DNA from: a virus
Direction: 5' to 3' (one strand)
Length of the DNA: 30,109 nt
Virus record (IMG/VR): IMGVR_UViG_3300019093_000041
Location: 1-30,109 of that record
Both the position numbers and the translations under genes were made by a program. Below the pieces are notes generated by a model. It was not told the origin of the DNA and did not search any database. It saw nothing but the letters and a program-made list of their open reading frames with translations. Positions within the stretch are counted from its first letter, which is position 1; each line of letters starts with the position of its first letter. Positions 3,874-9,052 of the stretch are shown in pieces.

Positions 3874-6800
3874 TTAGTAAACCGAAATACGGTTGGTATA
3901 TCGATCTAGAGAAGATCCTGTATATTCTGGTCTAGGATTTGCCTTCATTGGAACAATCTTAGTAGTATTGTTGCTACTTACATTGTTAGATACAACGGTA
4001 TTATTAGCACCTCCCCTACCGGCTTCTCTACCCATATCGGCATTTTCGGTAGAAGTCTTTGCAACTTCTTTTCCTGTTAGAATAGGGGAGCCTCTGCCAA
4101 CACTTCCCTCAACATCTAAAGCTGATGGTACAAGCGCTTGAGCTCTTTCTTCTTTTATATCTGCTAATTTTTTTCTAGCACCTTCAACATCACCTTTGGC
4201 ATTTAGTTCTTGGAGTTGTTTATATTCCTGTTTAGTTACCTGAGTATCATATTCTGCGCTATCGCCGCCTGTACCACTTACTTCACTAGTGACACTGTAC
4301 TTATCTCTACTAAATAGACCACCAGAGACTCTTTTGCCTAACATTCGTCCATACTGGGACTCCGACTTATCAATCGACTTACCTTCGATCTTACCAGATA
4401 CTAGACTGTCTTTACTATCCGTCCCTAGGAAGCTCCCTGACTCTTTTCCTTTTGCAGTAAATAAGCCCCCAAGGAATGTACTACCAAGTACAGATTTTTC
4501 AGCTGTTACACCTTCTTTTATCGTCCTTTCAGACGATGATATATTATCTCTTGGGCCTTGGTACATTTGACTATCTTTAGAGTCCACAGATGTAACACTA
4601 CCTATTTTTTGATCAGCCATAGCCGTACCCACTGGCTGATCATCCATACCTATACCGCTATTGTATACACCTTTAACCTTATCACCTATACCACCAAAGA
4701 AGCTAGATACAGATTTAGCCTTATCACCGATAAAATTACTTACCTTATTAGCAACACTATTTTCTTTAGCAGCTTTTATTTCTTCTAGTTTTTTCTTAGC
4801 GCCTTCAACATCACCTGTGGCATTAAGTTCTTGAAGCTGTTTGTATTCACTTTTAGTTACCGCGGTGTCATATTCTGCACTATCTCCTTTTGTACCACTT
4901 ACTTGACTAGTGACACTGTACTTATCTCTACCAAATAGCCCACCAGATACTCTTTTACCTAGCATACGACTGTCTTCTTGTTCTAACTTATCAATCGACT
5001 TACCTTCAATCTTACCAGACACTAGACTGTCTTTACTCTCTGATCCTAGGAAACTTCCGGATTCTTTACCCTTTGCAGTAAAAAATCCACCGAGAGTAGC
5101 GCTGCCAAGTATCGATTTTTCAGCTGTAATCCCTTCCTTTATTGACCTTTGAGATGATGATATATTGTCTCTGGGACTCTGGTACATTTGACTATCTTTA
5201 GAGTCCACAGATGTAACACTACCTATAAGCTGATCTGCCATGGCTGTACCCATTGGCTGATCACGTAGACCTATCCCTTTATCATAGTCATTATAGATAG
5301 TTTTAGCATCTCCATAAGCCCCTTTAACCTTATCACCTATACCACCAAAAAAGCCCGAAACAGAACTACCTAGCTTACCTGCTTTTTCTTTAACGTAGTC
5401 TATTCCTTCACCAGCTGCATTAATAGCTTTACCACCGTATTCACCAACTACCTTACCAGCTTTGGATCCTGCAAAAGCACCTATTGCACCTCCTGCTAAA
5501 CCCCCTATCGCAGTACCAACGGGACCACCGATAAACGTACCAGCCATTGCACCCAATTTAGCGCCAGCAATAGCGCCAGCAGCCATACCAGTACCTTCAC
5601 CAATAGCACCACTTTTCTCAACTGTTGCAGTATTACCTATCTCTTTTCTTGCAGCTGCAGCTTCCTCGGGTTTCATTTCACCAGAGTCAACCTTAGCCTG
5701 GACCTCCTCCATTTTAGCTTGCTTACTATCTTCGGCTGCTGTAAAGCCTTCGTAAGCAGTATATGCGCCAAGGCCAACTGCAGCAACTGAACCTAGTAAC
5801 TTACCCGCACCAGAATTAGCAAAGCCAACAGCTTTACTACCTAGGACTTTGGCTCCACCTAATAATTTACCACCAATCCCTGCTGCTTTACCTGCAACTT
5901 TTCCAGCAGCTTTTTTACCGCCGCCTAATAAATCCATTGCTCCAGAAGCAAGATCTCCTAGAAGTGAACCACCGCCTTCAGATTCTTTTTCTTTTTCAGT
6001 CGTTGGACCGCCTTTTTGTTCAGTTAATTCTTTTGGTGTTTTAGGAGCTAGAGCTTCTCTGATTGCTTTAAGTTCTACAAGTTGTGCTTTAGTTGTATCC
6101 AGCATTTGCTTAGATAACTCAAGATCACTCTTAGCTGTATCAGCCAGTATTTCACCAGTTGATGCAACGTTATCTGCTTCAGGATTTTCCTGCCTTGGGC
6201 TTGAAACATCAGCTTCTCTATCTTTCTTTTCTACATCTTTTGAGGGGGTTTGAAAAATACCTTGACCTGGTTTTTCAGACAAACCATCGGTCATAAAGAA
6301 CTTAAACCCACTCTCAAGCTCGTTAAAGAACCCTTGATACTTAGATTTATCTTCTTTCTCAGTATCAGCGGTAGGGTTATTTTTACCCCCTCTTACAGCA
6401 GCAGCAGCAGCTTTACCGGGGGTATAGTTTATTGGTTTTAATTTAAGAGCAGGTTCTGTTAAATCTGAACCTCTATCAGGTCCAGCAGATCCCCTTGCAG
6501 CAGCTATATCTTCAATACTTGCGTCTTCAGAAACCTTACCTTGTATTTTTAAATCTTTACTATTAACTGGTCCTCTATTTCTTGTTGCTACAGGAGCCAC
6601 CATGGCATCTTTAGTCGATGTAGTACGTACATCGGCTTCTTTTACCATCTTGTTCTTAGCTTCCTTGCCTTCTAAGTGATACCGTTGAGTATCAGCATCA
6701 AACTTAACTCTACCTTCACTTATCTTGCGCAATACTGAATGTTCTTCTAACGATTTTAAAAGTACTTCAGTAACGTTAGCTAAAGAATCTACTACAGGAG

Positions 6801-7032
6801 TAAAATCAATGGCAGGAGAATCAAGCTTTATCCCTGTAACAGCTTCCTTTAAAGTTTTTAAAGTTTCATTAATTTCATGCAATTGCTCCTCTCTCTTATC
6901 ACCGTCTTTACCTGCAATCTCTCTTTCAGCTTTTAACTGAAAGATTTGAGTAACAAAACTTTGATTGTTTTGCTTTTGCAGGTCTTCAAGAAACGCTTTG
7001 AAGCTAGGATCTGATGCTGATGGGGTTTGCAT
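3874..7032 (-). CDS. Large repeat-bearing structural protein, candidate tape-measure protein
   Basis: A 1052-residue protein ending in tandem stops (TAA TGA). Residues 1-100 are helical and probably coiled coil. A long low-complexity linker follows, then from about 355 to 580 Ala/Gly-rich hydrophobic stretches with GxxxG-type spacing (AGAIAGAKLGAMAGTFIGGP). The C-terminal half holds two tandem copies of a roughly 200-residue unit (GTAMADQ.IGSVTSVDSKDS, then GKRVSGGLF, then EYKQLQELNA). It is last in an operon after gp54, gp26, gp51 and a holin-like gene. A large protein downstream of a frameshifting chaperone pair is the classic place for a tape measure, and the hydrophobic glycine-rich middle fits. 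No direct match to T4 gp29 (590 residues) is recognised. The start overlaps the upstream stop as TAATG. Confidence 0.8.
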   Translation of the reverse strand: MQTPSASDPSFKAFLEDLQKQNNQSFVTQIFQLKAEREIAGKDGDKREEQLHEINETLKTLKEAVTGIKLDSPAIDFTPVVDSLANVTEVLLKSLEEHSVLRKISEGRVKFDADTQRYHLEGKEAKNKMVKEADVRTTSTKDAMVAPVATRNRGPVNSKDLKIQGKVSEDASIEDIAAARGSAGPDRGSDLTEPALKLKPINYTPGKAAAAAVRGGKNNPTADTEKEDKSKYQGFFNELESGFKFFMTDGLSEKPGQGIFQTPSKDVEKKDREADVSSPRQENPEADNVASTGEILADTAKSDLELSKQMLDTTKAQLVELKAIREALAPKTPKELTEQKGGPTTEKEKESEGGGSLLGDLASGAMDLLGGGKKAAGKVAGKAAGIGGKLLGGAKVLGSKAVGFANSGAGKLLGSVAAVGLGAYTAYEGFTAAEDSKQAKMEEVQAKVDSGEMKPEEAAAARKEIGNTATVEKSGAIGEGTGMAAGAIAGAKLGAMAGTFIGGPVGTAIGGLAGGAIGAFAGSKAGKVVGEYGGKAINAAGEGIDYVKEKAGKLGSSVSGFFGGIGDKVKGAYGDAKTIYNDYDKGIGLRDQPMGTAMADQLIGSVTSVDSKDSQMYQSPRDNISSSQRSIKEGITAEKSILGSATLGGFFTAKGKESGSFLGSESKDSLVSGKIEGKSIDKLEQEDSRMLGKRVSGGLFGRDKYSVTSQVSGTKGDSAEYDTAVTKSEYKQLQELNATGDVEGAKKKLEEIKAAKENSVANKVSNFIGDKAKSVSSFFGGIGDKVKGVYNSGIGMDDQPVGTAMADQKIGSVTSVDSKDSQMYQGPRDNISSSERTIKEGVTAEKSVLGSTFLGGLFTAKGKESGSFLGTDSKDSLVSGKIEGKSIDKSESQYGRMLGKRVSGGLFSRDKYSVTSEVSGTGGDSAEYDTQVTKQEYKQLQELNAKGDVEGARKKLADIKEERAQALVPSALDVEGSVGRGSPILTGKEVAKTSTENADMGREAGRGGANNTVVSNNVSSNNTTKIVPMKANPRPEYTGSSLDRYTNRISVY
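4150..5350 (-). repeat. Two tandem copies of a ~0.55-kb coding repeat
   Basis: Inside the 1052-residue gene, roughly 4150-4700 and 4771-5350 encode two versions of the same unit. Shared blocks include GTAMADQ, IGSVTSVDSKDSQMYQ, KESGSFLG, DSLVSGKIEGKSIDK, GKRVSGGLF, RDKYSVTS and EYKQLQELNA. Both DNA copies also carry near-identical runs, for example around 4671 and 5321. An intragenic duplication followed by divergence is the simplest explanation. Confidence 0.85.
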
Positions 7033-7496
7033 TATGCGCTAAAGTTAGGAGTTACAGGTCTTCTTCCACCAGGAGCTGTTATTGCTGCTTCAAAGCTTGG
7101 GGTTGGACCTGCAGCTGCAAATGGTGGTGTAAAACTCGGAGCGCCAAATGGTGCTGCAGCTGGAACTGGGTCTTCAAAACTCTGAGATTGAAATGCAGGA
7201 GCTGATAATGCGGGTTGTAGCGGTGGTGTGTAGTTAGATGCAGTACCAGCGACTTTTTCTTGGGTTCTACCCCATGCAGCAATACCTAAAACAGCACCCA
7301 TGGCGAGGTGAAATAACCCTGCACCCTGCAGAGTCAAAGGACTCCATTGCGTAACGGGCTGCTTGGTAAATACTTGTAGCATACTCCAGAGCACTGGAAA
7401 TATAGCCATATCAAGCATACAGATAGCCATGTACATCCAACCCATTGCCGGACGCCATTTCTTCTGCATCCAATCTTCGTCTTTTTTTTCTTCCAT
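7032..7496 (-). CDS. Holin-like membrane protein with Pro/Ala-rich tail
   Basis: A 154-residue protein. A charged N-terminus (EEKKDEDWMQKKWRPAMGW) leads into a first hydrophobic helix (about 18-41) and a second (about 53-75, LTLQGAGLFHLAMGAVLGIA), followed by WGRTQEK. This resembles phage holin-like proteins of the KWRP.MGW...PLTLQ type that I remember from T4-like and other marine phages. Residues from 86 on are Pro-, Ala- and Phe-rich with repeated P.F motifs and probably disordered. The ATG follows the gp51 stop directly (TAA ATG), and its stop overlaps the next start as TAATG. Being inside the tail-hub operon is unusual for a lysis gene, so a structural membrane protein is the alternative. 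Confidence 0.65.
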   Translation of the reverse strand: MEEKKDEDWMQKKWRPAMGWMYMAICMLDMAIFPVLWSMLQVFTKQPVTQWSPLTLQGAGLFHLAMGAVLGIAAWGRTQEKVAGTASNYTPPLQPALSAPAFQSQSFEDPVPAAAPFGAPSFTPPFAAAGPTPSFEAAITAPGGRRPVTPNFSA

Positions 7497-7703
7497 TTAC
7501 ATATTCCTTGCCGTCTGTTTAAGCATTTTCAGCTTTTCGTTTTCTTGTTTAATATAATCTATTAATAACGAAACATAAACCTCCCTCTCCCACGGCATCA
7601 TATTTTCAATTTCAGTCAAACTATACTTATGATGATGCATTAATGAAAAATTTAGCGTAAAGTAATTAGCTAAATTATCCGAGGAAAGGGTTATACGAAA
7701 AAA
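7497..7703 (-). CDS. 51: gp51-like hub assembly protein, probably made as a gp26-gp51 frameshift fusion
   Basis: The -1 frame relative to gp26 encodes FFRITLSSDNLANYFTLNF, then HKYSLTEIENMMPWEREVYV and a charged helix, about 68 residues. The block ending in PWEREVYVSLL is typical of the gp51 baseplate hub assembly family. This frame is open from 7721 but contains no ATG, GTG or TTG before the conserved FFRITLSSD; the first ATG (7640) would leave a 47-residue truncated protein. The frame meets gp26 at T TTT TTC (plus-strand 7697-7703), in the correct X XXY YYZ register. Slippage there would give a fusion of about 296 residues. The stop touches the holin-like start. Confidence 0.75.
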   Translation of the reverse strand, partial: FFRITLSSDNLANYFTLNFSLMHHHKYSLTEIENMMPWEREVYVSLLIDYIKQENEKLKMLKQTARNM

Positions 7704-8386
7704 TTCTGTAAACCTTCTAGCTTAGAAACATTATGCTTACCGCACTTAGGACAATCACATTCAATTGTTTGAACAATCTTTGGCGCAGTTACAAAAAACT
7801 GCTCTAACTTATCAAACTGTACTTTGGTTAAAGAAAATATAAACTCTTCTAATTCTTCTTTTGTCTGATCTGCTGCAGACCAATATTCGGTCTGGTTATA
7901 AATTGCATTAACACTCTTTACAATAAGATCGATAACTTTCTGGTTATCGTTGGTAGCAAAGATATCTACTACTTCATCGATGTTAGGGTATTTTAATTCG
8001 ATCCCTATTTCATCATTAATCATAATTTTATTAGAATGACCTTCTGGTTTAACAACCTTGAGGTCTTCAATATTAAAACTAGTATCGATCTTCTCACCGC
8101 ATTCACAATTAACAACTACGTCAACAGTCTCACTTATAGATTTAGCTCTTAGATGCATAAAGATATATTCAATATCAAAATGCGGCAATTCACTAATTTT
8201 AATAGTATTAAACGTACATACATCTACTAACTCTCTAATAATTCTAGCTACTTCACTGTTTTCTGCTTCTGACATAGTTAAAAGAATTTTATGTTCCTTA
8301 ACTAAGAACGGTCTAAATCTTAATTTAGCTCCCGTTGAAGGTAATGTCAATTCATACGTTGGTGTTTCTAATTTTGGTAAAGCCAT
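7691..8386 (-). CDS. 26: gp26 baseplate hub protein / tail assembly chaperone
   Basis: A 231-residue homologue of T4 gp26 (208 residues), needed to assemble the baseplate hub. The start MALPKLETPTYELTLPSTGA, then FRPFLVKEHKILL and FDIEYIFMHLRAKSI are family hallmarks. Cys94/Cys96 and Cys210/Cys212/Cys215 form two clusters that may bind one zinc together; this is inference. The protein ends KLEGLQNFFV. AAGGAAG lies 5-6 nt before the ATG, one of the clearer ribosome sites in the operon. The last codons AAT TTT TTC GTA TAA contain a -1 slippery heptamer, and the conserved gp51 sequence begins exactly there, so the protein may be produced both alone and as a longer fusion. Confidence 0.9.
   Translation of the reverse strand: MALPKLETPTYELTLPSTGAKLRFRPFLVKEHKILLTMSEAENSEVARIIRELVDVCTFNTIKISELPHFDIEYIFMHLRAKSISETVDVVVNCECGEKIDTSFNIEDLKVVKPEGHSNKIMINDEIGIELKYPNIDEVVDIFATNDNQKVIDLIVKSVNAIYNQTEYWSAADQTKEELEEFIFSLTKVQFDKLEQFFVTAPKIVQTIECDCPKCGKHNVSKLEGLQNFFV
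7697..7703 (-). promoter_or_regulatory. -1 slippery heptamer T TTT TTC at the gp26/gp51 junction
   Basis: Read on the minus strand, gp26 ends AA[T TTT TTC] GTA TAA. Re-pairing both tRNAs one base back gives TTT TTT CGT and continues into the gp51 frame. The heptamer fits X XXY YYZ. No strong downstream structure is seen; TAATT/AATTA with a 5-nt loop lies about 20 nt downstream and is weak. Confidence 0.65.
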
Positions 8387-8401: not shown

Positions 8402-9052
8402 TTAATCAATTCGTCTTGGGTCTCTTATTGCAAAATCTGCGCGGGCCTGCTGTGCTTGTAATAACTCTCTACTTTTTGGTGTATCCATCGGCATAGGTTG
8501 GAATTCGCGACCTATATCTTTCCAGTATCGGTATGCAAACAATACATTGAGCCGGTGGGTTTGGTTTTGAGCTGAGTTATTTAATTCTAAAGGATTAACA
8601 CTTCTTGGAAATGCTTCATATAATTCTAACTCGTATGTAACATTCTCTTGTTCATCTAACTGTCTTAATGTTATCGTTGAAGTATAATTTTCTTGGTAGT
8701 TTACTAATCCAGAGTCAGGATCAACTACTACAGCAGACCACTCGTCGAAAAACTTCTTTACATTCATATCTCTATCTACGTGAAATGTCAAAGATACTCC
8801 CTCCCCACCATACTCAGCCCCAAATGGTCTTTGATACGTAGGTCCGAAGATCTTAAAGGATTTAGTTGAAATATTAACCGGTGGCAGGCTTGCCATTTCA
8901 CAATAAAGGCTTGAAAAATCTGCATAGGATCTATTTACATTACTCATGCCTGTAGGTGCCGGAATCATAACTTCAAACCGGTTTACTCTTGCCAGGCTAT
9001 CTTCTCTAATAGCAGCAATAAATAAACTTAAATTAAAATTAGCTTTTGCCAT
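8402..9052 (-). CDS. 54: gp54-like baseplate tail-tube initiator (gp19 fold)
   Basis: A 216-residue protein of the T4 tail-tube fold family (gp19/gp48/gp54). The order of motifs is LARVNRFEVMIPAP (first strand), LYCEMASLPPVNI, FKIFGPTYQRPFG, LTFHVDRDMNVKKFFDEW and the terminal block RYWKDIG. gp54 sits on the baseplate hub and nucleates polymerisation of the gp19 tube. It is shorter than T4 gp54 (about 320 residues), as in cyanophage-type relatives. gp48, the other tube-fold baseplate protein, is recognised separately at 10127, which leaves gp54 as the best assignment. The ATG overlaps the upstream stop as TAATG; the gap to gp26 is 15 nt. Confidence 0.8.
   Translation of the reverse strand: MAKANFNLSLFIAAIREDSLARVNRFEVMIPAPTGMSNVNRSYADFSSLYCEMASLPPVNISTKSFKIFGPTYQRPFGAEYGGEGVSLTFHVDRDMNVKKFFDEWSAVVVDPDSGLVNYQENYTSTITLRQLDEQENVTYELELYEAFPRSVNPLELNNSAQNQTHRLNVLFAYRYWKDIGREFQPMPMDTPKSRELLQAQQARADFAIRDPRRID

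What the first reader, a model, noticed from the sequence alone, without database searches (positions are those of the whole stretch)
7691..7721. gp26 and gp51 linked by a -1 frameshift (T TTT TTC)
The conserved gp51 sequence (FFRITLSSDNLANYFTLNF onward) has no start codon of its own, overlaps the last codons of gp26 in the -1 frame, and joins gp26 exactly at an X XXY YYZ heptamer two codons before the gp26 stop. Lambda-type phages make G and G-T tail chaperones in this way just before the tape-measure gene; here a 1052-residue tape-measure candidate follows after one small gene. In T4 itself, genes 26 and 51 are separate, so this would connect the T4 hub proteins to the general tail-chaperone scheme.
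Basis: partly seen in the sequence, partly recalled or inferred. Interest (0 to 1): 0.8.

Follow-up and report, generated by a model that had tools for sequence, protein, structure and literature searches.

The report
T4-like tail chaperone made by frameshift
A T4-like phage uses one gene and a built-in ribosome slip to make a short and a long version of its tail-assembly chaperone, whereas T4 itself spreads the two versions over two genes; the sequence evidence is very strong, but the scheme was already published for T4-like phages in 2022.

Summary
The gp26 ORF (8386-7691, minus) ends AA T TTT TTC GTA TAA. A -1 shift at 7703-7697 joins it to a 68-codon stretch (stop 7499-7497) that encodes the gp51 domain and has no start codon ahead of its conserved beginning. 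In-frame TTTTTT[C/T/A] sits there in all 79 readable window-group sequences, 84 of 85 Kyanoviridae-type and 8 of 8 other T4-like sequences. Its two slippage-only wobble bases never vary among 101 divergent sequences. A Shine-Dalgarno-like GARGG lies 9 nt upstream; Kyanoviridae add a covarying hairpin 5 nt downstream. The interpretation also holds, with a refinement: T4 gp51 is a whole gp26-like protein plus the extension, in one frame. So T4 gp26 is the short form and gp51 the long form. Phages with the overlapping -1 frame carry one PF12322 gene; T4-type phages carry two. This is a lambda G/GT-type tail-assembly chaperone before a tape-measure candidate. The scheme is not new: Vladimirov et al. 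(Virology 2022) is cited for T4-like chaperone genes, their poly-T shift signals and the two-gene solution. Frameshifting and chaperone function were not tested here.

The parts
7691..8386 (-). gp26 ORF, 231 aa: short form (TAC-N-like)
   Evidence: PF12322 T4_baseplate E 8e-61; phrog_150 baseplate hub E 2e-64
7697..7703 (-). slippery heptamer T_TTT_TTC
   Evidence: same place and frame in 171 of 172 sequences of the window, Kyanoviridae-type and other T4-like groups (last base C, rarely T or A)
7713..7717 (-). Shine-Dalgarno-like GAAGG, 9 nt before the heptamer
   Evidence: anti-SD pairing of -4 kcal/mol or better in 91% of 101 relatives against 17% at random gp26 sites; the Glu codon there is GAG in 53 of 63 Kyanoviridae-type sequences against 31% usage
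7497..7703 (-). -1 frame extension: gp51 domain, 68 codons counted from the slip site, with stop TAA 7499-7497
   Evidence: phrog_634 'baseplate hub assembly catalyst' E 1.4e-27 and columns 231-276 of phrog_150; third-position-biased substitution in this frame, also before its first ATG
7649..7676 (-). possible weak AU-rich hairpin (8 bp, AAUUUAGC/GCUAAAUU) 20 nt after the heptamer; role uncertain
   Evidence: z -1.66, 12 of 200 shuffles as stable; similar stem in several close relatives; not at the usual 5-8 nt spacing
7032..7496 (-). small ORF between the chaperone and the tape-measure candidate; resembles a 3-TM holin family; missing in some relatives
   Evidence: PF11351 E 7e-6, phrog_3427 E 2e-8; absent in L056, L064, L069, L071, L073, L074
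3874..7032 (-). tape-measure candidate, 1052 aa
   Evidence: weak phrog_167 tape measure match E 3.5e-4; similar long ORF after the chaperone in 12 of 13 relatives checked
8402..9052 (-). tail-tube-like gene directly upstream of gp26
   Evidence: phrog_45 tail tube E 1e-35

Best explanation
The locus encodes a tail-assembly chaperone in two forms. Most ribosomes stop at the gp26 stop codon and make the 231-residue short form. A minority slip back one base when tRNA-Phe sits in both P and A sites on T_TTT_TTC, read into the -1 frame, and make a 296-residue long form carrying the gp51 domain. An internal Shine-Dalgarno-like sequence 9 nt upstream probably stimulates the slip; in Kyanoviridae a hairpin 5 nt downstream adds to it. 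By analogy with lambda G/GT, the common part would bind the tape-measure protein and the gp51 domain would recruit tail-tube subunits; neither form would be in the virion. In T4 and its closest relatives the same two forms come from two diverged gene copies: gene 26 (short) and gene 51 (long, one frame). Shown here: the anatomy, its conservation, the 1-versus-2 gene pattern and the homology. Inferred: frameshifting itself, its rate, chaperone activity and binding partners.
For: Frame-exact heptamer in 171/172 sequences, with slippage-only wobble bases fixed. In L053, L054, L056, L057, L062, L064, L066, L069 and L070 a -1 frame stop ends right before the heptamer, so the heptamer is the first place a ribosome can enter that frame (minimum overlap 10 nt). 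The extension evolves as coding sequence before its first ATG too (differences by codon position 0.20/0.15/0.43). 76 of 79 window-group sequences have no ATG/GTG/TTG in that frame before +35. SD-like element. Kyanoviridae hairpin: 85% of cells paired against 24-47% when slid, 27 double-change cells against 9.4 in shuffles. Exactly 1 PF12322 gene in all 21 surveyed records that have gp26 overlapped by a -1 frame gp51 domain, and in L152; exactly 2 in 7/7 T4-type phages and in Campylobacter CPt10. T4-type gp26 proteins match the fused profile only up to about column 238 of 297; T4-type gp51 proteins match through to 283-289. A long, tape-measure-like ORF follows in relatives. Prior work on T4-like chaperone genes agrees.
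Against: No expression data. No solved structure matches either predicted model, so a shared fold with lambda or HK97 chaperones is not shown. The window's own downstream hairpin is weak and badly spaced. The T4 gp26+gp51 joint clade has support 92/89, not decisive, with long branches. The tape-measure assignment of the 1052-aa ORF is weak by profile (E 3.5e-4).
Confidence: 0.93

Rival explanations
1. gp51 is a separate small protein started by reinitiation or translational coupling near the gp26 stop, as many cyanophage annotations assume.
For: An ATG lies 5 nt after the gp26 stop in 60 of 85 Kyanoviridae-type sequences, and at 2 nt in ValKK3, BUCT608 and Vibrio D533/K444.
Against: The window group has no such ATG and 14 of 58 Kyanoviridae-type representatives have none before +45. 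Where ATG+5 exists it lies in the 5' arm of the conserved hairpin. The model does not explain the fixed wobble bases of the heptamer. T4 gp51 and the natural fusion L152 carry the domain attached to a gp26 body.
Confidence: 0.04
2. Slippage by RNA polymerase on the run of six T makes mRNAs with a base more or less, which joins the frames without ribosomal frameshifting.
For: The site is a homopolymer run.
Against: Six T is shorter than usual transcriptional slippage runs (general knowledge). The conserved final C, the SD-like element 9 nt upstream and the hairpin 5 nt downstream are ribosomal frameshift signals. Rhizobium RHph_I1_18 keeps the phase with T_TTT_TTA.
Confidence: 0.02
3. The two reading frames are a sequencing or assembly error in one continuous gene.
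For: One relative, L152, does have one continuous frame.
Against: More than 170 contigs and phage records show the split with the same heptamer. L152 itself may be the error.
Confidence: 0.01

Closest known systems
[quoted passage not shown]
   Same: As cited by others: short and long chaperone forms, poly-T -1 shift signals in the short-form genes of T4-like phages, and a two-gene solution (short gene plus longer fused gene) in some T4-like phages (PMC10885494, PMC12846349)
   Different: The paper could not be read here. The uncultured phage group of the window, the SD-like element and the covarying hairpin are measured here; whether that paper reports any of them is not known.
Phage lambda G / G-T
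   Same: Short form plus a -1 frameshift long form encoded before the tape measure gene; [quoted passage not shown]
   Different: Lambda uses G_GGA_AAG (general knowledge), here T_TTT_TTC; fold similarity not shown
T4 gp26 and gp51
   Same: Both are PF12322 proteins; gp51 aligns end to end with the predicted fusion
   Different: Two genes on opposite strands, no frameshift needed; short and long bodies have diverged
dnaX-type bacterial -1 frameshift cassette
   Same: SD-like element about 10 nt upstream, heptamer, hairpin downstream (the Kyanoviridae version here)
   Different: Poly-T instead of poly-A heptamer; the window lacks a good hairpin

Membership tests
T4 baseplate hub gp26 family (PF12322) | match above curated cut-off over the whole domain | tested here: met
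   205.9 bits against cut-off 24.5, profile 1-218 of 219
gp51 / baseplate hub assembly catalyst (phrog_634) | profile match of the -1 frame peptide | tested here: met
   E 1.4e-27
Programmed -1 ribosomal frameshift | X_XXY_YYZ in phase with frame 0, inside the overlap | tested here: met
Programmed -1 ribosomal frameshift | nucleotide-level conservation of the site beyond protein needs | tested here: met
Programmed -1 ribosomal frameshift | stimulatory elements (SD-like upstream, structure downstream) | tested here: met
   SD-like in window and relatives; covarying hairpin in Kyanoviridae; window's own hairpin weak
Programmed -1 ribosomal frameshift | both products made | not testable with these tools
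   needs reporter or mass spectrometry
Tail-assembly chaperone (lambda G/GT type) | short and long forms that share an N-terminal body | tested here: met
   at sequence level; T4 gp26/gp51 show the same split as two genes
Tail-assembly chaperone (lambda G/GT type) | encoded just before the tape measure gene | tested here: met
   one small gene or none in between; tape-measure identity rests on a weak profile match and position
Tail-assembly chaperone (lambda G/GT type) | fold shared with solved chaperones | tested here: inconclusive
   no PDB match for either model
Tail-assembly chaperone (lambda G/GT type) | binds tape measure and tube protein, absent from virion | not testable with these tools
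   T4 gp51 is required for assembly but absent from the particle (PMC3004832); not tested for the window

The most novel reading that the evidence does not exclude
The T4-superfamily chaperone frameshift is tuned by lineage. Kyanoviridae use a full SD + heptamer + hairpin cassette whose stem also covers a spurious ATG; the window's group keeps only the SD and heptamer; Ackermannviridae and a Vibrio phage clade have one gene whose -1 extension begins at ATT_TTC or CTT_TTY, which is not an X_XXY_YYZ site and so implies a different kind of -1 entry (A-site-only slippage or non-standard reinitiation). Two lineages (T4-type and Campylobacter phages) escaped by duplication.
Probability: 0.45. Interest if true: 0.45.

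Novelty: new member of a known kind. Interest (0 to 1): 0.3.

Why it matters
It gives a well-sampled case of how a recoded gene and a duplicated gene pair solve the same problem, and says what T4 gp51, long listed as an essential hub protein of unknown function, probably is: the long tail-assembly chaperone. That step is already in print, so the added value is practical. Cyanophage 'gp51' genes drawn from ATG+5 and the unannotated gaps after gp26 in Ackermannviridae should be reconsidered as extensions of gp26.

Tried and rejected
Separate initiation of gp51: rejected for the window group (no start codon). Sequencing error: rejected by independent contigs. Chance heptamer: the motif itself is common, its phase-exact conservation is not. 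A conserved downstream hairpin in the window group: only a weak, far-spaced stem. Fold match to solved chaperones: none. An alignment with the gp51 peptides as separate fragments (A2) placed them wrongly and was not used. RNAalifold over raw positions returned no common fold; the pair count on the Kyanoviridae stem was used instead. First literature searches missed the prior paper because it is not held; it surfaced through a citing paper.

Full report
What is there. On the minus strand the gp26 ORF (8386-7691, 231 aa) ends AAT TTT TTC GTA TAA. The heptamer T_TTT_TTC occupies 7703-7697 and is in phase for a -1 slip. After the slip the frame runs to TAA at 7499-7497 and encodes FFRITLSSDNLANYF...QTARNM. 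gp26 is PF12322 (E 8e-61). The -1 peptide matches phrog_634, the gp51 family (E 1e-27), and also the last columns of phrog_150, whose profile spans both parts.

Is it more than chance. The heptamer is not rare in this AT-rich DNA (13 copies, 9.9 expected). Its placement is. 80 loci were fetched; gp26 and its stop codon could be read in 78, which with the window makes 79. A frame-correct TTTTTT[C/T/A] is present at the gp26 end in 79 of 79, in 84 of 85 Kyanoviridae-type loci, and in 8 of 8 others, including Schizotequatrovirus ValKK3, Aeromonas Asswx_1, Stenotrophomonas BUCT608 (locus 53.8% GC) and Rhizobium IC12; RHph_I1_18 has T_TTT_TTA further upstream. Among 101 representatives below 85% identity the codon before the two Phe codons encodes N, S, A or D yet always ends in T, and the first Phe is always TTT. 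These two wobble positions are not read as protein in the -1 product, so slippage is the best explanation for their constancy. The naive probabilities from codon usage are 7e-19 and 1e-12; the sequences are related, so they are indicative only. T TTT TTC occurs at 1 of 98 other Phe-Phe pairs. In nine or more relatives a -1 frame stop lies directly before the heptamer, so a ribosome can enter the extension frame only from there on.

Signals around it. GAAGG or GAGGG lies 9 nt before the heptamer: 91% of representatives pair with the anti-SD at -4 kcal/mol or better, against 17% at random gp26 sites. In Kyanoviridae the Glu codon in it is GAG in 53 of 63, against 31% usage. Kyanoviridae also carry an 11-bp stem that starts 5 nt after the heptamer. 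On 51 distinct sequences 85% of cells pair, against 24-47% when slid by 1-3 columns, with 27 double-change cells against 9.4 in shuffles. Most of the covariation is in one pair (UA/GC/AU), so it is support, not proof. The window's group shows only a weak AU stem 20 nt downstream.

No separate start. 76 of 79 window-group sequences have no ATG, GTG or TTG in the -1 frame before +35. The stretch before the first ATG evolves like coding sequence in that frame (0.20/0.15/0.43 by codon position). Many cyanophage records annotate gp51 from an ATG near the gp26 stop, but at +5 that ATG lies in the hairpin's 5' arm, and it is absent in other members.

Link to T4. T4 gp26 (208 aa) and gp51 (249 aa) both match PF12322 over the full profile (216 and 186 bits), so they are paralogues. 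gp51 aligns end to end with the window's predicted fusion (BLASTP 2e-8), through the junction ([22 protein letters not shown] against LEGLTSFWLGMAHVDLASYYK in the natural fusion L152). A profile of 99 predicted fusions is matched by T4-type gp26 proteins up to about column 238 of 297, near the shift point, and by T4-type gp51 proteins to columns 283-289. Whole-record counts of PF12322 give exactly one gene in all 21 surveyed records with gp26 and an overlapping -1 frame gp51 domain and one in L152; exactly two in seven of seven T4-type phages, and two in Campylobacter CPt10. A tree of the shared body puts T4 gp26 and gp51 together (92/89) apart from the rest, consistent with one duplication in the T4 stem; long branches limit this, and the Campylobacter pair may be a second duplication. 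AlphaFold models of T4-type gp51 and of L152 (pLDDT 90) have a similar order of elements; no PDB structure matches. In the viral model library L152 matches proteins named baseplate hub in many myoviruses.

What it is. The arrangement (short form, -1 shift, long form, then a tape-measure candidate) is the tail-assembly chaperone scheme of lambda G/GT. A long tape-measure-like ORF follows in 12 of 13 relatives checked, with or without the small holin-like gene between. In T4, gp51 is essential for assembly and absent from the particle (PMC3004832). A 2016 review still listed T4 as the exception to G-T frameshifting (PMC5009743).

Prior work. [quoted passage not shown] I could not read it. Two citing papers state that some T4-like phages carry a short gene plus a longer fused gene (PMC10885494) and that poly-T shift signals are known in the short-form genes of T4-like phages (PMC12846349). 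From memory, its abstract names T4 genes 26 and 51 and says frameshifting is conserved in several T4-like groups. So the finding is right but not new; the window is a new member.

Open points. Ackermannviridae (GAR ATT TTC ATT TAA) and a Vibrio clade (CTT TTY) have one gene and a -1 frame extension, without a start codon near its beginning in the Ackermannviridae and in VPALA, but no X_XXY_YYZ site. L152 has one continuous frame through a 2-nt deletion; this could be real or an assembly error. No step here measured frameshifting or chaperone activity.

Noticed in passing
L085, L095, L096, L192-L206 (Ackermannviridae); L086, L094, L099 (Vibrio phages): One PF12322 gene followed by a -1 frame gp51-like extension (no start codon near its beginning in the Ackermannviridae and L099; L086 and L094 have an ATG at the gp26 stop), but the junction is ATT TTC or CTT TTY instead of an X_XXY_YYZ heptamer; how the -1 frame is entered is unexplained, and the extension is mostly unannotated in the public records seen.
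   Followed up: partly
L152:1501-2391: Natural in-frame gp26-gp51 fusion of 297 aa: TTTTTTCGG of the nearest relative (L160) reads TTTTTGG, a 2-nt deletion. Either a phage that has lost the short form or an assembly error.
   Followed up: partly
L097:2326-3060 and L208 (Campylobacter phage CPt10): Two PF12322 genes, one long (244 aa, with a gp51-like end) and one short (225 aa), grouping with each other rather than with T4 copies (92/62, long branches): possibly a second, independent duplication.
   Followed up: partly
window 7032-7496 (minus): Holin-like 3-TM small gene between the chaperone and tape-measure genes; present in some relatives and missing in others.
   Followed up: partly
window 3874-7032 (minus): The tape-measure candidate holds a long internal repeat (two copies of a block around QPxGTAMADQxIGSVTSVDSKDSQMYQ).
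   Followed up: no
L084:5971-6597 (T4 gp26): T4 gp26 gives a weak match (E 9e-4) to phrog_1140, the baseplate hub distal subunit (gp28) family; an Acinetobacter phage record (L093) names gp26, gp51 and gp28 all as tape measure protein assembly chaperones.
   Followed up: no
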